A program made the translations under genes and the position numbers. From DRGV01 sp018903055 [NCBI: bacterium] (GTDB lineage Bacteria > UBP18 > UBA7526): a stretch of 6,943 nt of DNA. Each line of letters starts with the position of its first letter. Position 1 is the stretch's first letter. The notes beneath the pieces were generated by a model, which was given only the letters and a program-made list of their open reading frames with translations, was not told where the DNA came from and ran no database searches. The stretch covers positions 1 to 6,943 of the forward strand of contig JAHIPW010000184.1 of assembly GCA_018903055.1 (NCBI GenBank), read 5' to 3'. Positions 68-5,855 of this stretch are shown one piece after another.

Positions 68-215
68 GCAAAATGCCCTTCCAGGATCCCGTAGGGGCAA
101 AATGCCCTTCGCTTTGCTCAGGATACCTCGAAGGATGCAGCGAAGTATCCCGCCCCTCAAGGGATCCCGCAGATCCCTTTTCGGGATCAAGGGAAGAGAA
201 ATCGAGGGGCAAAAT
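68..215. repeat. Direct-repeat and hairpin cluster at the start of gap 1
   Basis: The 14-base word gcaaaatgcccttc occurs exactly at 68-81 and 97-110. A shorter form, ggggcaaaat, occurs at 94-103 and 206-215. Between them are several inverted repeats: GGATAC (121-126) with GTATCC (145-150); GGGATC (161-166) with GATCCC (172-177), which can alternatively pair with GGGATC (183-188); and an outer GCCCCTC (152-158) with GAGGGGC (204-210). Together these could form a branched hairpin or cruciform. No T-run follows, so it does not look like an intrinsic terminator. No reading frame or tRNA is visible. Confidence 0.7.
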
Positions 216-229
216 TAGCAATGCAAAAT

Positions 230-285
230 GAGAAAATGAGAAAGTGGGAAAGTGGGCAGGTGGGAAAGTGAGAAAGTGGGAAAGT
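230..285. repeat. Tandem 8-base array, unit GRGAAAGT
   Basis: Seven head-to-tail octamers fill this stretch exactly, running from gagaaaat (230-237) to gggaaagt (278-285). Most are gagaaagt or gggaaagt, and one diverged copy is gggcaggt (254-261). It runs without a gap into a heptamer array at 286, so the repeat unit changes abruptly from eight to seven bases. It is purine-only apart from the final T and one C. Confidence 0.85.
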
Positions 286-313
286 AATCGGTAATCGGTT
301 ATCAGTAATCGGT
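286..313. repeat. Tandem heptamer array, unit AATCGGT
   Basis: Four consecutive 7-base units: aatcggt, aatcggt, tatcagt, aatcggt. The third unit shows the CGGT to CAGT change also seen in the arrays at 3143-3401, 3638-3672 and 5761-5840. The array directly abuts the octamer array on its left. Confidence 0.85.
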
Positions 314-339
314 GTAACCAAAAAAAGAAGTGCAACAAA

Positions 340-434
340 GGGAAACGGGGAATCGGGGAAAGTGAGAATCGGGGAGACGGTGAAACGGGGATCTGTGATC
401 TGTGGCCATCTGTAAACAATCTGTGATGATCTGT
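340..434. repeat. Octamer array grading into ATCTGT repeats before the isomerase gene
   Basis: From 347 to 394 there are six 8-base units of the type ggggaatc, ggggaaag, tgagaatc, ggggagac, ggtgaaac and ggggatct. The word ATCTGT is then repeated at 391-396, 398-403, 408-413, 419-424 and 429-434 with uneven spacing. The last copy carries an in-frame GTG (433) that could be mistaken for the start of the downstream gene. Together with the arrays on its left, this accounts for most of the 391 bases between the first fragment and the isomerase. I see no gene in the gap. Confidence 0.75.
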
Positions 435-443
435 GGTTAAAAA

Positions 444-448
444 AGGAG
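444..448 (+). promoter_or_regulatory. Ribosome binding site that sets the isomerase start
   Basis: AGGAG lies five bases before ATG 454. The alternative upstream GTG at 433 is inside the ATCTGT repeat and has no comparable site, so the ATG is the likely start. Confidence 0.8.
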
Positions 449-453
449 AAACG

Positions 454-1434
454 ATGAAACTAGGAAGAAATTTTACTAACACTTTTGTTCTGGATAAGTT
501 GAGTAAAGAGGATCAAAATAAGGTTTTGAGTGGAGAGTATGACCTCTTTAGTATGAATGCCTTAGGGTTAATTAAGTTCAAAAAGGATATTTCCTCTCAG
601 ATTAAATTGGCCAAGGAGTTTGATCTGGACCATATAGAACTGGATGGCGATGTTCCCAACCCCTATCCAGATTTCAGCAAAGAAGAGAGGAAGAGAGTGA
701 GAGAAGAAGCGAGGAAGGAGGGGATTTCCCTATCCCTTCACCTCTCTTATTCCAATGCTGGTTCAAGCGTCTGTAGTCTTCAGGAGCTGGACAGAAGAAA
801 GGCAGTAGAACTGCAGAAGGTGTATATTGATTTTGCCTCTGATATTGGAGCAAGGTACTTGGTTATGCATCCGGGAAGTGCTCCCTTCTATATGATTTCA
901 GAAATCTATCTGGAAAGATTGGAAAAGGCCCTGGTTAAGACCTTAGTAGAATTAGGGAATTATGCCCAGGAGAGGAATTTACTGCTCCATTTAGAGAATA
1001 ACGTTGCTTTTGATAACATATTTGTTGAACCGGAAAAATGCATTGAGGCAGTTGAAGAAGCAAGGCGGCAGGGTGCAGAGATTTACTTTAACTTCGATAT
1101 CGGCCACTGGTTTACCAGGGCAGATTGTGGGAAGGATGTCCCTGATGAACCAGAGAGGGTAATGGAAAAGATTCCCAAGGAACTGGTAAAGGAACTTCAC
1201 CTCAATGACTATGTCCCTAAAAAAATAACCTTCCACCCCCCGCTACATCTGGAAACCGGGCCCCTGAAGAAAGAAAACCTAAAGAGATATTTTGAAATAG
1301 TGAAGAAACTCGAACCAGAACTTATCGTCCTGGAGACGGCCTATAAGTATCTCGATCAAGTGAAGGATAGGAAAAAGATTCTGGAAGAGGAGACGGCCTA
1401 CATTAAAGAACTAATGCGAAATGCACAGCTTTAA
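454..1434 (+). CDS. Sugar phosphate isomerase/epimerase-like TIM-barrel protein
   Basis: This 326-residue protein has the layout of the xylose isomerase-like / AP-endonuclease family 2 superfamily. These are (beta/alpha)8 barrels that usually bind divalent metals and isomerise or epimerise sugars, or less often cleave DNA at abasic sites. Strands ending in likely active-site residues appear in order: DHIELDGD (about 59-66), LSLHLSYS (93-100, H96), YLVMHPGSAP (135-144, H139), LLLHLENN (176-183, E181), YFNFDIGHW (211-219, D215, H218), KELHLND (246-252, H249) and LIVLETA (291-297, E294). E181, D215 or H218, H249 and E294 fit the family metal-ligand pattern. No signal peptide is visible, so it is probably cytosolic. 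I chose ATG 454 over GTG 433 because of the ribosome binding site. The substrate cannot be inferred, and the neighbours are not sugar genes. Endonuclease IV is less likely because its full set of metal-site histidines is not evident. Confidence 0.85.
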   Translation: MKLGRNFTNTFVLDKLSKEDQNKVLSGEYDLFSMNALGLIKFKKDISSQIKLAKEFDLDHIELDGDVPNPYPDFSKEERKRVREEARKEGISLSLHLSYSNAGSSVCSLQELDRRKAVELQKVYIDFASDIGARYLVMHPGSAPFYMISEIYLERLEKALVKTLVELGNYAQERNLLLHLENNVAFDNIFVEPEKCIEAVEEARRQGAEIYFNFDIGHWFTRADCGKDVPDEPERVMEKIPKELVKELHLNDYVPKKITFHPPLHLETGPLKKENLKRYFEIVKKLEPELIVLETAYKYLDQVKDRKKILEEETAYIKELMRNAQL

Positions 1435-1446
1435 GAAACAACAAGA

Positions 1447-1554
1447 GAAATCCGAAATTCTAAATCCGAAATCCGAAACAAATCCGAATGTTCAAAATCC
1501 AAATGACCAAAACAAAAACAAAAGATTTTTCCGTTTTGAAATTTGAGATTTGAA
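1447..1554. repeat. Heptamer array (GAAATCC type) with a partly inverted right half
   Basis: The left half begins with exact 7-base steps: gaaatcc, gaaattc, taaatcc, gaaatcc (1447-1474). It continues less regularly through caaatcc, aaaatcc and aaatgac. After an A-rich stretch the right half is again heptameric but on the other strand: ttttgaa, atttgag, atttgaa (1534-1554). The left word ttcaaaatc and the right word ttttgaaattt are partly complementary, so the region can fold back imperfectly. It starts 13 bases after the isomerase stop codon. Confidence 0.75.
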
Positions 1555-1558
1555 TTTA

Positions 1559-1630
1559 CCCCATTAGAATATCTTCGATTTCTAACGGGGCGGGGATATT
1601 GCCTGCCCCGTAGCTCCCGACTTGTCGGGA
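1559..1630. repeat. Three consecutive hairpins
   Basis: Three inverted repeats follow each other. CCCCATTAGAA (1559-1569) pairs with TTCTAACGGGG (1580-1590) with one A/C mismatch. CGGGG (1591-1595) pairs with CCCCG (1606-1610). TCCCGA (1615-1620) pairs with TCGGGA (1625-1630) around CTTG. Any of them could slow transcription after the isomerase gene, but none has a downstream T-tract, so I call them repeat elements rather than terminators. They sit between two heptamer arrays. Confidence 0.7.
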
Positions 1631-1640
1631 TGGTATGGGG

Positions 1641-1671
1641 TTTAGTATTTCGATATTAGGATTTAGTATTT
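1641..1671. repeat. Tandem heptamer array, unit TTTAGTA
   Basis: Four 7-base units, tttagta, tttcgat, attagga and tttagta, followed by a partial ttt. It is a second short array in the same gap, with a different word from the one at 1447. Confidence 0.75.
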
Positions 1672-1687
1672 AACACCTTTGGAATTT

Positions 1688-1699
1688 CCCCGATAGGGG
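1688..1699 (+). promoter_or_regulatory. Small hairpin overlapping the exonuclease ribosome binding site
   Basis: CCCC (1688-1691) can pair with GGGG (1696-1699) around GATA. The only purine-rich ribosome binding candidate for ATG 1706 is AGGGG (1695-1699), so pairing would hide it. This is a short stem and its regulatory role is only an inference. Confidence 0.4.
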
Positions 1700-1705
1700 T
1701 TTACT

Positions 1706-2305
1706 ATGACTAAGAAAACGAAAGAGAAGATCATCTGTGTCATCGATACCGAGACCACGGGGAGAAGGCAGGATGGGGGGGAGATCATCGAACTGGGAGC
1801 GGTGAAGTATTCCTATAAGAGTGGAAAGGCCAAAATCTTGGGAAGGTTCTTCGGGCGTATCAGGCCCAGGACAGATTACTTTAACCCTCAGGCCTTAGCC
1901 GTGAATAGGATAGATCCGGTTACTTTAAAAAATAAACCACTTATAGAAGAGATCTTTCCCGAATTTTTAAACTTTATAAAGGGAAGCATCCTGGTCGTCC
2001 ATCGGGCGGGATTCGATGTCGACTTCATCCGGGCGGCGATAAAGGAGTGTAAACTCCCAGTGCCCAATAACTGGGTTTGTGATACAGCAAAGATGGGGAG
2101 TATGCTCTTCAAGAAGAGAAACCTACACTTAGAGGACATGCTGAGAGAATTCAGAATAAAAAGGCCCTTTGGGAGACATAAGTCTTGGATCGACTGTGTC
2201 TGTACCGGGAAACTCTTCTTCAAGATGGCCCGGGGCTATAAACTTTCCGAACTCAGGGCGGAAAGGTTCAAGGAAGTAAAATTCAGGAAGAAGTATGATT
2301 ATTAA
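1706..2305 (+). CDS. DnaQ-like DEDDh 3'-5' exonuclease, stand-alone
   Basis: This 199-residue protein is a single exonuclease domain of the DnaQ/PolC-epsilon/RNase T superfamily, which removes nucleotides from 3' ends using two metal ions. Exo I is VIDTETTG (12-19, D14 and E16). Exo II is HRAGFDVDFI (99-108, with D104 as the likely ligand). Exo III is HKSWID (158-163), which supplies the general-base H158 and D163, placing it in the DEDDh rather than DEDDy group. All catalytic residues are present. The basic tail (about 182-199, rich in K and R) could bind nucleic acid. There is no polymerase, helicase or BRCT domain, so it could be a proofreading-like subunit, an RNase T-like or oligoribonuclease-like enzyme, or a repair exonuclease. 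The Exo III motif has S-W between H and D, where A-x-x is more usual. Neighbouring genes do not narrow the role. Confidence 0.88.
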   Translation: MTKKTKEKIICVIDTETTGRRQDGGEIIELGAVKYSYKSGKAKILGRFFGRIRPRTDYFNPQALAVNRIDPVTLKNKPLIEEIFPEFLNFIKGSILVVHRAGFDVDFIRAAIKECKLPVPNNWVCDTAKMGSMLFKKRNLHLEDMLREFRIKRPFGRHKSWIDCVCTGKLFFKMARGYKLSELRAERFKEVKFRKKYDY

Positions 2306-2327
2306 ATCGTATCAAAATTTGAGTAAT

Positions 2328-2471
2328 CACACGGATGGGCACAGATTAAAAGATACGGATTAGCACTGATGCTCATTGCTAAATCCGTGTCAATGCTTAA
2401 TTATTTATGCTCTCTAGGATGCCAACGAAGTGCATCCTGTAATCAGTTTAGTTAATCCGTGCTAATCTGTG
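2328..2471. repeat. Inverted phrase repeat (ATCCGTG / TCTGTG family) in gap 3
   Basis: The right end, ttaatccgtgctaatctgtg (2452-2471), has its reverse-complement words at the left end: cacagatta at 2340-2348 and cggatta at 2356-2362. An inner hairpin pairs ACGGATTAGC (2355-2364) with GCTAAATCCGT (2378-2388), with one bulge. From memory, near-identical phrases (aatccgtg plus aatctgtg) recur as dispersed intergenic repeats in many unrelated environmental bacteria. The repeat fills most of the space between the exonuclease and kinase genes. Confidence 0.7.
2416..2438. repeat. Hairpin element with a CGAAG loop
   Basis: AGGATGC (2416-2422) pairs with GCATCCT (2432-2438), giving seven perfect base pairs with the loop CAACGAAGT. 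A relative lies at 133-150, where the stem words are GGATGC and GTATCC and the intervening bases are AGCGAA. A shorter one with GCGAAGTG lies at 2478-2494. It interrupts the inverted phrase repeat, as if inserted into it. Confidence 0.65.
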
Positions 2472-2487
2472 AAGATTGCCGAGCGAA

Positions 2488-2493
2488 GTGAGG
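2488..2493 (+). promoter_or_regulatory. Ribosome binding site inside a repeat element, for the kinase gene
   Basis: GTGAGG lies six bases before TTG 2500. It belongs to the small imperfect hairpin GCC...GGC (2478-2494), which shares GCGAAGTG with the other CGAAG hairpins. It supports TTG 2500 as the start over TTG 2476, which lacks a clear site. Confidence 0.5.
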
Positions 2494-2499
2494 CTTATC

Positions 2500-3147
2500 T
2501 TGTATCCCTTTATCTTTCTCTTGGGTCGCCCAGGATGTGGGAAGAGCGTAATCTACGAGATGCTCACTGAGAGACTAAAAAGAAGAAAAGTGGCCAAAGA
2601 ATTTATAAGAATAGACGACTTTCCTATCTTAAAAGAACTCTTTGATAAGGATGTTCATTTCAAGAGGCATCGGAGAAAGGCCGGTGGTTTTGAGGTCACT
2701 GACTGGAGCATTGTGGATGAGGTATTGAAGATAGTGAATGATAGAATAATAAAGTTAGAGAAAAAAAATAGGATCATTTTCATTGAGTTTGCCAGGAATA
2801 ACTATCTTCAGGCATTAAAGAATTTCACCCCAGAAGTTTTAGAAAAATCTCTTATCCTTTATATCTTCGCCCCCTACCAGGTCTGTTATGAGAGGAATAT
2901 CAAGAGGTTTCAAGAGAAGGAGGGAGAGGATCTGGACAGTCACATCGTTCCTCCCGATCTCATGGAGTCCTACTATAAAGAGGATGACTTTGAAGAACTC
3001 CTTTTAGAGTCTGAAGAGAGACTTAAAGGGGCTTCTCCTGCTCCCTTGATAGTCATTGATAGCCGAAAGACAGGAAAGGTAGAGTTAAGGCCAGAGGTAG
3101 AGAAGGCAGCCAGGGCCCTGGAGGAGAGAATAAAAGACAGAAGTTAA
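2500..3147 (+). CDS. P-loop nucleotide/nucleoside kinase-like protein, substrate unknown
   Basis: Read from TTG 2500, this is a 215-residue single-domain P-loop protein. A hydrophobic first strand leads straight into the Walker A motif GRPGCGKS (9-16, K15 and S16). IRIDDF (36-41, D39 and D40) resembles the acidic substrate-side motif of uridine kinase-like proteins. IIFIEFARNNY (92-102, E96 and R99) is a buried strand ending in polar residues. YERNIKRF (130-137, R132 and R136) looks like a lid helix with phosphate-binding arginines. This order matches the nucleoside monophosphate kinase / shikimate kinase / zeta-toxin class, but I recognise no specific family. The start is uncertain: TTG 2476 and GTG 2488 are in frame and would add eight or four residues, but those residues come from repeat DNA. 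No ATG precedes Walker A. The stop codon TAA lies in the first unit of the downstream repeat array. Confidence 0.75.
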   Translation: MYPFIFLLGRPGCGKSVIYEMLTERLKRRKVAKEFIRIDDFPILKELFDKDVHFKRHRRKAGGFEVTDWSIVDEVLKIVNDRIIKLEKKNRIIFIEFARNNYLQALKNFTPEVLEKSLILYIFAPYQVCYERNIKRFQEKEGEDLDSHIVPPDLMESYYKEDDFEELLLESEERLKGASPAPLIVIDSRKTGKVELRPEVEKAARALEERIKDRS

Positions 3148-3401
3148 TATCGGTTAAAAACGGTTAACAACGGTTAAAATCGGTTGGGTATAAGGAATCG
3201 GCAGAAGAGGGAAATCAGTTGTTGGAAAACGGAAATCGGTAGAGAAAACGGAGAACAGAAAAATGGAAAAACCCTGATTTCGGATTTCCGATTTCGCTAC
3301 TGTTTTCAGATTTCGGTCAACTGTTTTCTGATTCCAGTAGAGTAAAGACAATTACAGCAACTGATATTAACTGATTTTAACTGCTATTAACTGTTGATAA
3401 C
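3143..3401. repeat. 259-base fold-back repeat with 10-base arrays as its arms
   Basis: The left arm carries 10-base units cggttaaaaa, cggttaacaa and cggttaaaat (3151-3180). The right arm carries ctgatattaa, ctgattttaa, ctgctattaa and ctgttgataa (3361-3400), the reverse complement of the same family. Over 43 bases (3143-3185 against 3359-3401) 31 positions are complementary, and four more become G-U pairs in RNA. Inside, GAAATCGG and AAAACGG words on the left face CCGATTTC and CTGTTTTC words on the right, so the symmetry continues inwards. The left arm includes the kinase stop codon (3145-3147). The right arm ends 22 bases before the DUF3006 start. I see no gene or promoter here. Confidence 0.8.
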
Positions 3402-3423
3402 TTTTTATCTATGGGGGTGTTAG

Positions 3424-3642
3424 ATGAGAGGAGTAATTGATAGAATTGAGGAAGGAATTGCGGTCATCGAACTTGAGGATAGGTCTCAGATTTTTTTCCC
3501 TGCCAAGAATCTTCCCAAGGGAGCGGGAGAGGGGAGTGTTTTGATGATTGATATTACTTACGATGCCCAAGCAACCAGGAGACAGAGAGAGAAGATCAAG
3601 AGGCTCCAGGAGAAACTATTAAAGAGGTCCCGTGGTCGGTAG
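3424..3642 (+). CDS. DUF3006 family small protein
   Basis: This 72-residue protein fits DUF3006. It opens with the typical MRGVIDRIEEGIAVIEL strand pair (1-17, including the D-R-I-E signature), followed by FPAKNLPKGAGEG (25-37, the LP-x-G-x-x-EG turn), a strand VLMIDITYD (39-47), and a charged helix (52-70) rich in K, R and Q. The predicted fold is a small beta-barrel plus a C-terminal helix, cytosolic, with no known enzyme activity. The start ATG 3424 is preceded by GGGGGTG (3413-3419). The TAG stop (3640-3642) falls in the first unit of the downstream heptamer array, so the last residues (RGR) may have been shaped by the repeat. From memory, DUF3006 genes often sit beside ComEC-type competence hydrolases. 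Here the next gene is a type IV pilus motor, about 400 bases away. Confidence 0.85.
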   Translation: MRGVIDRIEEGIAVIELEDRSQIFFPAKNLPKGAGEGSVLMIDITYDAQATRRQREKIKRLQEKLLKRSRGR

Positions 3643-3672
3643 TCAATAGTCAGTAGTCGGTAGTCAATAGTC
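3638..3672. repeat. Tandem heptamer array, unit RRTAGTC
   Basis: Five perfect 7-base steps: ggtagtc, aatagtc, agtagtc, ggtagtc, aatagtc. The first unit contains the TAG stop of the DUF3006 gene. Read across unit boundaries, the array contains CGGT and CAGT words like those at 286-313 and 5761-5840. The 78 bases after it (3673-3750) hold nothing I recognise. Confidence 0.85.
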
Positions 3673-3750
3673 AAAGGGTCAAGTGTTTGAAAAAGAACTC
3701 ACTAAAATCAGAAGTCCAGTGTTACCTATATGGTCAGCCAGCACATTAAC

Positions 3751-3779
3751 TTGACAAATTTAGATAAATATGCTACCAT
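3751..3779 (+). promoter_or_regulatory. Sigma70-type promoter with extended -10, upstream of pilB
   Basis: A perfect -35 TTGACA (3751-3756) is separated by 17 bases from TACCAT (3774-3779), which matches TATAAT at four of six positions. It is preceded by TG-C (3771-3773), the extended -10 signature. The spacer is AT-rich. Transcription would start near 3786, leaving a leader of about 260 nt before pilB. It is the best promoter match I found in the window. Confidence 0.7.
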
Positions 3780-3793
3780 AAAAACAAAAGTTG

Positions 3794-3920
3794 ACAGGCT
3801 ACAGGTTACAGGCTACAGGCTACAGGCTTGTGGCCTGCGGCTTGTGGCTTGAAGCCTGCGGCTTGCGACCTGCAGCTTGAGGCCTGTAAGTTTGAAGCCT
3901 GAGGCTTGCGACTTGCACCC
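3794..3920. repeat. 18-unit heptamer array in the pilB leader
   Basis: The stretch divides into 18 consecutive units, 17 of seven bases and one of eight (tgtaagtt, 3885-3892). The first five are acaggct or acaggtt. The rest follow TG-N-R-R-C/G-Y, such as tgcggct, tgaagcc and tgaggcc. GGCT-type and AGCC-type units are complementary to each other, so the transcript could fold on itself in several registers. It begins a few bases after the predicted transcription start, so its copy number would set leader length. A remnant (gaggcc, tgaagca) reappears at about 3981-3993 after the two hairpins. Confidence 0.85.
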
Positions 3921-3981
3921 TGAAATTTAGGAGAAATTTCGGGTACTTTAGTCCCTGAAATTGCCAATGCAATTTCTAGGG
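3919..3981 (+). promoter_or_regulatory. Two related hairpins in the pilB leader
   Basis: Hairpin 1 pairs CCTGAAATTT (3919-3928) with AAATTTCGGG (3934-3943), ten pairs including one G-U, with the loop AGGAG. Hairpin 2 pairs CCCTGAAATTGC (3953-3964) with GCAATTTC plus AGGG (3969-3981), twelve pairs with one bulged T and the loop CAAT. Both open with CCTGAAATT, so they may be copies of one element. Neither is followed by a T-tract, so termination is unlikely. An RNA structure affecting leader stability or translation is possible. Confidence 0.6.
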
Positions 3982-4034
3982 GAGGCCTGAAGCATACTTT
4001 ATTACTTATCAACTTATTAACTGATTCAAATTTT

Positions 4035-4040
4035 AAGGAG
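4035..4040 (+). promoter_or_regulatory. Ribosome binding site that fixes a TTG start for pilB
   Basis: AAGGAG lies seven bases before TTG 4048. It is one of the strongest sites in the window, and no ATG lies nearby in frame, so pilB very probably starts at TTG. Just upstream (4016-4026) attaactgatt repeats an 11-base word from 3366-3376, a remnant of the CAGTT repeat family. Confidence 0.8.
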
Positions 4041-4047
4041 TGATTAA

Positions 4048-5751
4048 TTGGTAGAAGCAAGGCAGAGAACCCTGGAAAGAATATTAACCTCAAGCGGGCT
4101 CCTTACTCGGGAACAGTTGAATACTGCCTTAGAAGAGCAGCGCAAGGAGAAGGGGAGACTGGAGAAGGTCATCATACGCCTGAAATTGGCTACCCATGAC
4201 CAAATACTTGATCTCGTTGCTGCTCAACTGGGGATGAAAAGGATAAAATTGGAAGATTATAAGTTTAGTGAGGAAGCCCTGAAGGCCATCCCAGCAAGGA
4301 CCGCCCACCTCTATAGAATGATTCCCATAAAAAAGACCAAGAAGACTTTAACGGTAGCCATGGCTGACCCCTTTGATATCCGCTCCTTAGATGACCTCTC
4401 TCTTCTATTGGACTGTAAGGTAGAGGGGATGGTGGCCCCTGAAGACGAGGTGATGAAGGCCATTGAGAAGAACTATGGTCTGGTTGAGGAGTCTGTAGAA
4501 GAGATGGTGGCCGGTATGGATGAGGAGTTAGAGGTAATACATGAGGAAGAAGGAGCAGAAGAATTAGAAGAGATCGCAGACGAGGCTCCCATCATCAAGC
4601 TGGTCAGTCTCATTATCCTGCAGGCCCTGAAGGAGAGGGTAAGTGATATTCATTTAGAGCCTTTTGAAAAGACCTTTAAAATAAGATATCGGATAGATGG
4701 AGTATTACACGAGAAGACCCCTCCTCCAAAACGCTTCCAGGCAGCCATGCTTTCTCGACTAAAAATCATGGCCGGGATGAATATTGCAGAGAGGAGGCTT
4801 CCCCAGGATGGAAGAATCATGCTCCGGATGCTGGGGCGGGATATCGACCTGAGGGTCTCTTCCTTTCCTTCTCTCTTTGGGGAAAGCATCGTCATGAGAA
4901 TCCTGGATAAGTCCAGTGTTATGCTGGGTTTAGCGGAGGTGGGCTTCCTGTCCGACTCTGAGGAACTCTTCAATTCCCTGATCAAGAGACCCAATGGAAT
5001 CATGCTGGTCACTGGGCCCACGGGAAGTGGAAAGACTACTACTCTATATGCCGCGCTCAATAAGATCAATACCGCGGATGTTAAAATCATCACCGTTGAG
5101 GATCCGGTAGAGTATCATATCTCCGGAATAAACCAGACCCAGGTAAAGCCCAATATCGGTCTCACCTTCGCTCGCTGCCTCCGTTCCATCCTGCGTCAGG
5201 CACCGAACATCATCATGATTGGTGAGATAAGGGATGTGGAGACGGCAGAGATTGCCATAAGAGCCTCCCTAACCGGACATCTTGTCTTCTCTACTCTACA
5301 TACCAACGATGCCCCCTCTGCCGTTACCCGTCTGATGGATATGGGGGTGAAGCCCTTCCTGGTCTCCTCCAGTGTGGCCGGGGTCATGGCCCAAAGGCTG
5401 GTAAGGACCATCTGTTCCGAGTGCCGGGAGGCCTATGAGCCGAGCACCAAAGACCTACTCCTTTTAAATAAAAAGAAAGAAGACTTGAAGGACGGAAAGT
5501 TATATAGAGGGAAGGGATGTTCGGCCTGTACCCATACCGGCTACCGGAAAAGGACCGGGATATTCGAGGTCATGCCTGTTACTGACAGGATAAGGGACCT
5601 CATCCTGGAGAAAGCCCCGGCCGCAACGGTAAAGACCAGAGCTCGGGAGGAGGGGATGAGGACCATGAGGGAGGACGGCTTCCTGAAGGTGGCCCTGGGT
5701 CAGACCACTATTGATGAGGTATTGAGAGTAACCCAATCAGACATTGAGTAG
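4048..5751 (+). CDS. pilB: Type IV pilus assembly (extension) ATPase PilB / GspE family
   Basis: This 567-residue cytoplasmic hexameric motor powers pilus polymerisation at the inner-membrane platform (PilC). The N-terminal MshEN-type domain (about 1-145) holds two 24-residue motifs (8-31 and 37-60) with the usual five-residue spacer, but RLG reads TLE in the first and RLE in the second. An acidic linker (about 146-180) leads to the N2 domain (SDIHLEPF, 199-206; RLPQDGRI, 250-257). The ATPase core has Walker A GPTGSGKT (323-330), Asp box ITVEDPVEY (348-356), Walker B region IIMIGEIRD (388-396, E393) and His box GHLVFSTLHTND (410-421, H411 and H418). Zinc-binding cysteines are C456, C459, C491 and C494, as in PilB and GspE but not PilT. 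Before Walker B the sequence reads RQAPN, where RQDPD is usual. The following pilT makes PilB more likely than the type II secretion protein GspE. Confidence 0.93.
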   Translation: MVEARQRTLERILTSSGLLTREQLNTALEEQRKEKGRLEKVIIRLKLATHDQILDLVAAQLGMKRIKLEDYKFSEEALKAIPARTAHLYRMIPIKKTKKTLTVAMADPFDIRSLDDLSLLLDCKVEGMVAPEDEVMKAIEKNYGLVEESVEEMVAGMDEELEVIHEEEGAEELEEIADEAPIIKLVSLIILQALKERVSDIHLEPFEKTFKIRYRIDGVLHEKTPPPKRFQAAMLSRLKIMAGMNIAERRLPQDGRIMLRMLGRDIDLRVSSFPSLFGESIVMRILDKSSVMLGLAEVGFLSDSEELFNSLIKRPNGIMLVTGPTGSGKTTTLYAALNKINTADVKIITVEDPVEYHISGINQTQVKPNIGLTFARCLRSILRQAPNIIMIGEIRDVETAEIAIRASLTGHLVFSTLHTNDAPSAVTRLMDMGVKPFLVSSSVAGVMAQRLVRTICSECREAYEPSTKDLLLLNKKKEDLKDGKLYRGKGCSACTHTGYRKRTGIFEVMPVTDRIRDLILEKAPAATVKTRAREEGMRTMREDGFLKVALGQTTIDEVLRVTQSDIE

Positions 5752-5760
5752 AATAATATA

Positions 5761-5840
5761 TCGTTTACGGTTTACAGTGAACGGTTTACGGTAAACAGTA
5801 AACAGCGAGGCCATAGGCCGAGCGGGTAAACGGTAAACGA
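5761..5840. repeat. Heptamer array with inverted halves between pilB and pilT
   Basis: Left units contain GTTTAC (cgtttac, ggtttac, 5762-5775, and ggtttac at 5783-5789). Right units contain its reverse complement GTAAAC (ggtaaac, agtaaac, 5790-5803, and ggtaaac twice at 5825-5838). The ends 5761-5775 and 5826-5840 are inverted copies matching at 14 of 15 positions, and GTTTAC-G-GTAAAC (5784-5796) is a perfect inner palindrome. A different 21-base insert centred on GGCC-ATA-GGCC (5804-5824) interrupts the array. The word AGCGAGG in that insert recurs at 5843-5849, just before pilT. No terminator is seen, so pilB and pilT are probably cotranscribed through the repeat. Confidence 0.85.
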
Positions 5841-5855
5841 TTAGCGAGGTGAAAG

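What the first reader, a model, noticed from the sequence alone, without database searches (positions are those of the whole stretch)
230..5840. Each gap has its own short-period repeat family, mostly period seven
Read directly: octamers and AATCGGT heptamers (230-394), GAAATCC and TTTAGTA heptamers (1447-1671), 10-mers (3151-3400), RRTAGTC heptamers (3638-3672), an 18-unit heptamer array (3794-3920) and RGTTTAC/RGTAAAC heptamers (5762-5838). The word differs in each gap while the period is mostly kept. That points to a process that copies seven-base steps from a local seed rather than spread of one mobile family. Heptanucleotide STRR repeats of heterocystous cyanobacteria are the closest known precedent, but this does not look like a cyanobacterium.
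Basis: partly seen in the sequence, partly recalled or inferred. Interest (0 to 1): 0.72.

Follow-up and report, generated by a model that had tools for sequence, protein, structure and literature searches.

The report
Heptamer-armed hairpins filling bacterial gene gaps
The gaps between genes in this uncultured bacterium are largely filled with copied, nested DNA hairpins whose arms are built from seven-base steps; they belong to many families shared between gaps, and what moves them is unknown.

Summary
In 262 gaps of at least 60 bp, identity at lag 7 is 0.3275, against 0.263 in shuffles and 0.264 in coding DNA. There are 133 lag-7 arrays against 0.6 expected; lags 8 and 10 are also raised.

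"Copied from a local seed, not spread of a mobile family" fails as the main process. 234 of 296 gaps share sequence with another gap, up to 97.6% away from contig ends. All six window gaps have copies elsewhere. The same families fill gaps of sister genomes (63 of 108, 103 of 168), yet 15 of 19 orthologous long gap pairs share no 40-bit match.

Part of the idea survives: among indels of 3 bp or more between copies, 7 and 8 bp are commonest.

Best reading: many lineage-specific families of dispersed hairpins that nest in one another without a constant target duplication. Six genomes give no match to RT or three transposase models; MutS is missing too. New variant of a known kind.

The parts
76..243 (.). 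GC-rich nested hairpin block in gap 1
   Evidence: Copies at L122:3268-3129 (97.9% over 140 bp) and L123:1-161 (91.7% over 168 bp), both at contig ends. A 42-bp inner piece present in the L122 and L123 copies is missing from L141, the flanks meeting with gap 0.
230..313 (+). octamer array GAAAGTGG followed by AATCGGT heptamers
   Evidence: TRF; 0 of 2000 shuffles. AATCGGTAATCGGT with at most 1 mismatch: 30 places in the genome vs 2 for the reversed control.
340..435 (+). octamer GGGAAACG array and ATCTGTG repeats ahead of the AP_endonuc_2 gene
   Evidence: 340-391 lag 8, 0 of 2000 shuffles; 391-435 has a 93% copy at L004:3026-3070.
1447..1558 (+). GAAATCC heptamers and, facing them, TTTGAAATTTGAGATTTGAA
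   Evidence: matches in L187 (G001, 82% over 111 bp) and L135 (86% over 70 bp). Inverted score of the whole gap only 35 vs shuffle maximum 32.
1641..1672 (+). weak TTTAGTA heptamers
   Evidence: 11 of 2000 shuffles reach the value.
2306..2487 (+).
   Evidence: 93.8% copy over 161 bp at L157:10123-10283; the orthologous G003 gap lacks a 50-bp inner piece, about 2390-2440; no gap there in L021 and L023.
3143..3402 (+). composite: outer 10-mer arms (3143-3185, 3359-3402) around an AAATCGG heptamer part (about 3203-3333)
   Evidence: inverted score 71 vs shuffle maximum 32. Reverse-orientation copy at L004:599-323 (78.7% over 277 bp); inner part at L122 (89.8% over 118 bp). Absent at the L023 orthologous junction, short version in L021.
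3638..3674 (+). RRTAGTC heptamers, overlapping the end of the DUF3006 gene by a few bases
   Evidence: 0 of 2000 shuffles.
3751..3779 (+). sigma70-like promoter (TTGACA, 17 bp, TACCAT) ahead of pilB; context, not part of the element
   Evidence: Read by eye; a like sequence stands in L021, L022 and L023 while what follows differs. Not tested.
3794..3923 (+). CAGGCTA / GGCTTGC heptamer array
   Evidence: Lag-7 identity 0.68 vs 0.26. Two-unit word: 32 hits in G000, present in 6 of 6 family genomes, in 1 of 235 others (one hit); the reversed control rings in 5 of those 235 and in G005.
3891..4026 (+). multi-stem repeat (CCCTGAAATTT..AATTTCTAGGGG) inside the pilB leader, overlapping the array
   Evidence: 90.4% copy over 136 bp at L142:3602-3737; 85.4% over 96 bp at L152. 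No Rfam match at gathering score in the window.
5762..5841 (+). GTTTACG/GTAAACG heptamer hairpin with inner GGCC-ATA-GGCC
   Evidence: 91.8% copy over 73 bp at L130:2230-2302; inverted score of the gap 30 vs shuffle maximum 16; other copies carry a different inner piece at the same place, by eye.

Best explanation
The gaps hold members of many lineage-specific families of dispersed, non-coding hairpin repeats. Each family has its own short word, because its arms are tandem arrays of a 7-, 8- or 10-bp unit, often facing each other in inverted orientation. Shown: related copies lie in many gaps and in sister genomes; a site may be filled in one genome and empty or differently filled in another; pieces, by eye mostly hairpins, are present or absent inside older copies with no constant target duplication; copies differ by 7 or 8 bp more often than by neighbouring lengths. 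Inferred: the elements spread at the DNA level by insertion into single-stranded or replicating DNA (templated copying, or an unrecognised enzyme), are tolerated mainly between genes, and their arms then lengthen and shorten by slippage in unit steps. The 7-nt preference may reflect the stretch that DNA polymerase contacts, as Mrazek et al. 2007 proposed (seen only as cited in PMC4679880 and PMC4692102). Loss of MutS would relax the barrier to exchange between diverged copies (established knowledge, from recall). Anatomy and dispersal: about 0.85. The insertion route: about 0.35, not settled.
For: Lag-7 excess genome-wide; 133 lag-7, 66 lag-8 and 57 lag-10 arrays vs under 1 each in shuffles. 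Inverted arms in 148 of 202 same-strand gaps (about one in six expected by chance). 1550 inter-gap matches touching 234 of 296 gaps vs 0 in one shuffle and 17 against reversed gaps. Copies at 97.6% (L131/L147) and 96.9% (two in L126). Shared pool with G001 and G003, none in 577 gaps of L024-L100. Empty or differently filled orthologous sites. 169 presence/absence comparisons inside copies, flanks at the unfilled copy meeting at 0 (23), -1 (22), -2 (22), +1 (19). Indels between copies: 7 bp 44, 8 bp 26 vs 5 bp 7, 6 bp 16, 9 bp 10. MutS model: 0 of 6 family genomes, 107 of 114 other genomes searched with a 90% completeness filter.
Against: No mobilising enzyme found; only three transposase families plus RT were tested. 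The middle half of matches is 82-91% identical, so few are recent. Indels of 1 and 2 bp outnumber those of 7 (96 and 39), the strict count has 11 of 4 bp beside 12 of 7 and 13 of 8, and aligning periodic arrays itself favours unit-length gaps. Presence/absence of inner pieces was not polarised: some may be deletions. Lags 6, 9 and 11-13 also exceed shuffles (7-13 arrays vs 0.4-1.6). Not purely intergenic: 58 of 412 called genes match a gap element, 133 of 249 matches well inside them, and called genes hold 41 lag-7 arrays vs 4 at lag 11; my home-made gene finder may misplace genes. G006 has dense heptamer arrays, MutS and Y1 transposases, so neither absence is needed. Only 80 of 191 contigs plus the window were read.
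Confidence: 0.7

Rival explanations
1. Local seeding: each gap grows its own heptamer array from a nearby seed, with no movement between gaps.
For: 72 necklace classes among 133 arrays; orthologous long gaps share a 40-bit match in only 4 of 19 pairs; L021 has a short hairpin with like flanks where the window has the expanded composite; unit-length indels.
Against: 234 of 296 gaps share sequence with other gaps, including unrepeated inner parts and both orientations; the window composite recurs reversed in L004.
Confidence: 0.08
2. Ordinary MITE- or REP-like elements moved in trans by a standard transposase that the MAGs have lost or failed to assemble.
For: Dispersed, non-coding, inverted, mostly intergenic, lineage-specific. 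REP/RAYT systems look like this (PMC2817692, abstract). Multi-copy insertion sequences often drop out of MAGs (general knowledge). G006, with similar arrays, has Y1 transposases.
Against: No PF01797, PF02371 or PF01609 match in 6 of 6 genomes; no constant target duplication, only a small bump at 5 bp (14 of 169); many families with shared 7/8/10-bp periods are unlike one transposon's derivatives.
Confidence: 0.25
3. RNA regulatory or processing elements kept by selection (attenuators, RNase sites, translation control).
For: Copies lie in the same orientation to their genes in 70 of 95 gap pairs with best matches of 100 bp or more. Same-strand gaps fold better than shuffles, median z -3.0. G-U over A-C in the arms, 394 to 313, p 0.003 before allowing for composition. 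MacGregor proposed translational regulation for TAACTGA repeats (PMC4679880, abstract).
Against: The sense strand folds no better than the antisense strand once composition is allowed for (p 0.97); most orthologous long gaps carry unrelated sequence (15 of 19).
Confidence: 0.15

Closest known systems
TAACTGA heptamer repeats of marine Beggiatoaceae (MacGregor 2015, PMC4679880; abstract and introduction read)
   Same: Heptamer repeats in intergenic DNA at many loci, patchy across phyla, transfer suspected with no evident mechanism.
   Different: There one word, nearly all direct (169 direct sets, one indirect), mostly just ahead of start codons; here many words, inverted arms, nesting.
Palindromic microsatellites of Fusarium mitochondria (PMC7218506; abstract read)
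   Same: Arms of a palindrome made of a slippage-prone repeat, length change by sliding, presence differing between species, read as mobile.
   Different: Mononucleotide (A)n/(T)n arms in an organelle; here 7-, 8- and 10-bp units in bacteria.
Repetitive hairpin-forming elements of sponge and Allomyces mitochondria (PMC2800124; abstract and one section read)
   Same: Dispersed intergenic hairpins, large differences between close relatives, and for Allomyces no flanking duplication.
   Different: Organelle DNA; no heptamer-unit arms described in the parts read.
Heptamer SSRs of Xanthomonas and Nostoc (PMC4692102; passages read)
   Same: Intergenic heptamers; between two Xanthomonas the locus is mostly kept while length and sequence vary; some inverted pairs.
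   Different: A G-rich word per genome studied, quadruplex-prone; here many words and hairpins inside hairpins.
Paired octamer and heptamer sites of Geobacter metallireducens (PMC2700814; passages read)
   Same: Tandem 7- or 8-mers on opposite strands at variable distance, many copies.
   Different: Read there as regulator binding sites in a few classes; no nesting mentioned in the passages seen.
REP/BIME with RAYT transposases (PMC2817692; abstract read)
   Same: High-copy intergenic palindromes forming mosaics.
   Different: A RAYT gene is associated there; no Y1_Tnp match in six genomes here.
Stem-loop repeat families in 40 bacterial genomes (PMC2267715; passages read)
   Same: Many intergenic families with shared stem-loops.
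   Different: No heptamer arms or nesting seen in the passages; the words 'nested' and 'tandem' do not occur in its text.
STRR repeats of heterocystous cyanobacteria
   Same: Heptanucleotide period.
   Different: Known to me from recall and search listings only; not compared in sequence here.

Membership tests
REP/BIME moved by RAYT | Y1 tyrosine transposase (RAYT) in the genome | tested here: not met
   PF01797: 0 of 6 genomes of the family; control rang in 5 of 14 genomes. MAGs are 53-93% complete.
REP/BIME moved by RAYT | Palindromes in more than 100 copies per genome | tested here: inconclusive
   Many copies in all, but spread over many families; no single family was counted in full.
MITE | Constant target-site duplication | tested here: not met
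   Overlap at the unfilled copy centres on 0 with a small bump at 5 bp (14 of 169); only -14 to +3 was allowed and gain was not told from loss.
MITE | Non-coding, inverted, dispersed copies | tested here: met
Repeats made by a reverse transcriptase | Reverse transcriptase gene | tested here: not met
   PF00078: 0 of 6 genomes; control rang in 3 of 14.
TAACTGA-type single-word heptamer repeat | One word at most loci | tested here: not met
   133 arrays fall in 72 necklace classes, the commonest with 12.
Cyanobacterial STRR | Heptanucleotide arrays in heterocystous cyanobacteria | tested here: not met
   Nearest named genomes are UBP18_UBA7526 and two unclassified MAGs.
Known structured RNA | Match to an Rfam model | tested here: not met
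   0 matches at gathering score over the window.
Mitochondrial-type repetitive hairpin elements (works like) | Dispersed hairpins without a constant flanking duplication | tested here: met
   This supports likeness, not common descent; absence of a gene inside each element was not tested one by one.

The most novel reading that the evidence does not exclude
A process common to several bacterial phyla, not needing a known transposase, inserts hairpins into hairpins and grows their arms in seven-base steps, so that unrelated lineages independently fill their gene gaps with heptamer-armed hairpins, each with its own vocabulary of words. Against the enzyme-free part: G006 has Y1 transposases.
Probability: 0.3. 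Interest if true: 0.82.

Novelty: new variant of a known kind. Interest (0 to 1): 0.58.

Why it matters
Heptamer over-representation among bacterial repeats was reported in 2007 (as cited in PMC4692102), and I found no tested cause in the papers seen. One family of small genomes here offers many families of hairpins with 7-bp steps, traceable nesting and unit-length differences, so both the cause of the number seven and the way gene-less hairpins spread could be tested. Where flanking proteins are 72-97% identical, most long gaps carry unrelated sequence, so intergenic DNA turns over fast and is poor ground for reading conserved regulation.

Tried and rejected
RNA-level selection: sense and antisense folding energies differ only as composition predicts, so the case does not rest on RNA; the orientation bias keeps it open. 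Enzymes: no PF00078, PF01797, PF02371 or PF01609 match in the six genomes (controls rang in 3, 5, 4 and 9 of 14). Multi-copy genes in the contigs read: three pairs with matches of 153-435 bp at 89-91%, not identified. SbcD loss as a permissive cause: no match in 6 of 6 family genomes, but also none in 43 of 114 others, and only 29 of 116 pass the curated cut-off, so it is not distinctive. MutS loss is more distinctive (7 of 114 others lack it), but G006 has both MutS and heptamer arrays. PF13589, a domain shared by MutL and other ATPases: weak matches below cut-off in four of the six genomes, none in two, so MutL loss is only suggested. Rfam: nothing.

A null for the number of word classes could not be made: 40 shuffles gave only 46 arrays. 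The first gene-finder run was spoilt by runs of N and is not used. Eight literature searches (the last but one for the phylum name) listed the precedents named, and I saw no description of nested multi-word heptamer hairpins; most subscription journals are not held.
Full report
What the window is. The window is contig C179 of a 1.085 Mb draft genome in 191 contigs, 85% complete. Its six genes, all on the + strand, encode an AP_endonuc_2 TIM-barrel protein, an RNase_T exonuclease, an AAA-type protein (below the curated cut-off), a DUF3006 protein and two T2SSE ATPases that I call PilB and PilT (those names are mine). The nearest named genomes are UBP18_UBA7526 (89% in the PilT protein) and two unclassified MAGs, CSMAG_2758 (91%) and CSMAG_2684 (92%). 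Five relatives of the same family are held without names.

The observation. The arrays are present at the coordinates given and almost all exceed chance (details in the observation check). The effect is not local. I read 80 of the 191 contigs plus the window (472,874 bases, 56,848 of them N) and called genes with a simple hexamer-based finder, giving 296 gaps of at least 30 bp (57,796 bp). In those of at least 60 bp (262) identity at lag 7 is 0.3275 against a shuffled mean of 0.263 (z about 45 on 20 shuffles), with echoes at 14 and 21; in coding DNA it is 0.264; without the window 0.3256 in 256 gaps. Counting arrays by score in all 296 gaps: lag 7 gives 133 (0.6 in five shuffles), lag 8 gives 66 (0.8), lag 10 gives 57 (0.4). 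Lags 4 and 5 are at chance; lags 6, 9, 11, 12 and 13 give 7 to 13 against 0.4 to 1.6. So the period is 7 first, 8 and 10 second. Called genes also hold 41 lag-7 arrays against 4 at lag 11, partly perhaps misplaced gene ends.

Printed side by side, the 45 gaps with the strongest lag-7 stretches look mostly like hairpins. In 148 of 202 gaps of 60-450 bp between same-strand genes the best inverted alignment beats all five shuffles, where chance would give about a sixth, and the median folding z is -3.0. The window gap 3148-3423 is among the strongest (71 against a shuffle maximum of 32); the first window gap is weak (31 against 27, folding z -0.3). The sense strand has no folding advantage over the antisense strand beyond base composition (Wilcoxon p 0.97). 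G-U over A-C pairs in the arms is 394 to 313 (p 0.003 against an even split, not corrected for composition). So the symmetry is mainly that of DNA.

Not seeds but families. An all-against-all comparison of the 296 gaps gives 1550 matches between different gaps, touching 234; one shuffle gives none, and reversed gaps give 17. 30,581 of 57,796 gap bases lie in such matches. The six window gaps have matches on 22, 6, 13, 12, 12 and 12 other contigs of the same genome among those read. Some copies are close: L131:8632-8755 against L147 at 97.6%, two copies in L126 at 96.9%; matches of 97.9-100% also occur at contig ends, where they may be assembly overlaps. Half of all matches fall between 82% and 91%. 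The 3148-3393 composite recurs in reverse orientation at L004:323-599. The CAGGCTA word occurs 32 times in this genome, in all six genomes of the family and in one of 235 others, where the reversed control rings in five. In G001 63 of 108 gaps and in G003 103 of 168 gaps match this genome's gap families, with no match for reversed controls; none of 577 gaps from 77 named loci of other lineages do.

Orthologous gaps. With flanking proteins 72-97% identical, gaps that are at least 60 bp in both genomes share a match of 40 bits or more in 2 of 7 cases (G001) and 2 of 12 (G003). Whether a gap is long is itself shared (Fisher p 0.025 and 0.017), so certain gaps tolerate insertions while their content is replaced. 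Several sites are empty in a relative: the window 3148-3423 gap is absent in L023, where the two genes overlap by four bases, and 2306-2487 is absent in L021 and L023.

Nesting. Comparing copies with and without an inner piece gave 169 cases of 15 bp or more among the gaps of G000, G001 and G003; a few still overlap each other. Of the 32 printed, the extra pieces look mostly like hairpins by eye. At the unfilled copy the flanks meet with an overlap centred on zero (23 cases at 0, 22 at -1, 22 at -2, 19 at +1, a small bump of 14 at -5; only -14 to +3 was allowed), so there is no constant target duplication. Gain was not told from loss in each case. The GTTTACG family shows the inner piece exchanged between copies while the arms stay (by eye). 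Copies lie in the same orientation to their genes in 70 of 95 gap pairs with best matches of 100 bp or more, and in 501 of 712 at 40 bp or more; pairs within a family are not independent.

Why seven. Among indels between copies, 1 bp (96) and 2 bp (39) are commonest; beyond those, 7 bp (44) and 8 bp (26) stand out against 3 (10), 4 (15), 5 (7), 6 (16), 9 (10) and 10 (6), and 27 of the 44 are at least 70% identical to their neighbour. With stricter flanks the counts are 12 at 7 and 13 at 8 against 4 at 3, 11 at 4, 3 at 5, 5 at 6, 3 at 9 and 1 at 10. Periodic arrays favour such gaps in alignment, so this is support, not proof. Mrazek and colleagues proposed that 7 nt is the stretch that the polymerase contacts, making slippage by 7 likelier; I saw this only as reported in PMC4679880 (introduction) and PMC4692102 (passages). 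The survey PMC4060949 (passages) adds that mismatch repair handles loops of 1-3 bp well and longer ones poorly.

Machinery. The six genomes of the family give no match to Y1_Tnp, RVT_1, Transposase_20 or DDE_Tnp_1. SbcD is missing from all six, but 43 of 114 other genomes also gave no match, so this is not telling. MutS is missing from all six, while 107 of 114 other genomes have it under a 90% completeness filter and 11 of 14 named controls do; this is unusual and could relax exchange between diverged copies. Against a general role: G006 has MutS, Y1 transposases and dense heptamer arrays.

Beyond this family. In 84 loci from other lineages (1.2 Mb) lag-7 arrays number 59 and lag-14 arrays 49, against 18 at lag 5 and 17 at lag 11; in the gaps of 77 of them 38 against 6.3 expected (multiples of 3 are also raised because the gene mask is imperfect). 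Planctomycetota, Armatimonadota and others show heptamer arrays, several facing an inverted partner by eye. So the pattern occurs in some unrelated lineages with different words, which is the most interesting open point.

Verdict. The seed model is wrong as the main process; dispersed, nested hairpin families with slippage-prone arms explain more. How the hairpins move is not settled.

Noticed in passing
G000-G005: The MutS C-terminal domain model has no match in any of the six genomes of this family, and an ATPase domain that MutL shares with other proteins gives no match above cut-off; mismatch repair may be lost.
   Followed up: partly
window 3751-3779; L021, L022, L023: A sigma70-like promoter ahead of the pilB gene is seen in four genomes while the leader after it is replaced (by eye).
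   Followed up: no
L227 (G006) 395-3998: Another unnamed lineage has ten heptamer arrays within about 4 kb, several after the lead-in CAATTCCCAATTTC, with a recurring inner piece GGGCAGACGCCCGCCCGTCTGGGC.
   Followed up: no
G000 gaps: Element copies share their orientation to the neighbouring genes in about 70-75% of gap pairs, which hints at strand-biased insertion or selection.
   Followed up: partly
L021 7161-8267: In UBA7526 the gap before pilB is about 1.1 kb, with a run of N and no heptamer array seen in the readable part.
   Followed up: no
G000:C25:1870-2922 and G004:C8:15801-16853: A second PilT-like gene reads with one in-frame TGA in both genomes.
   Followed up: no
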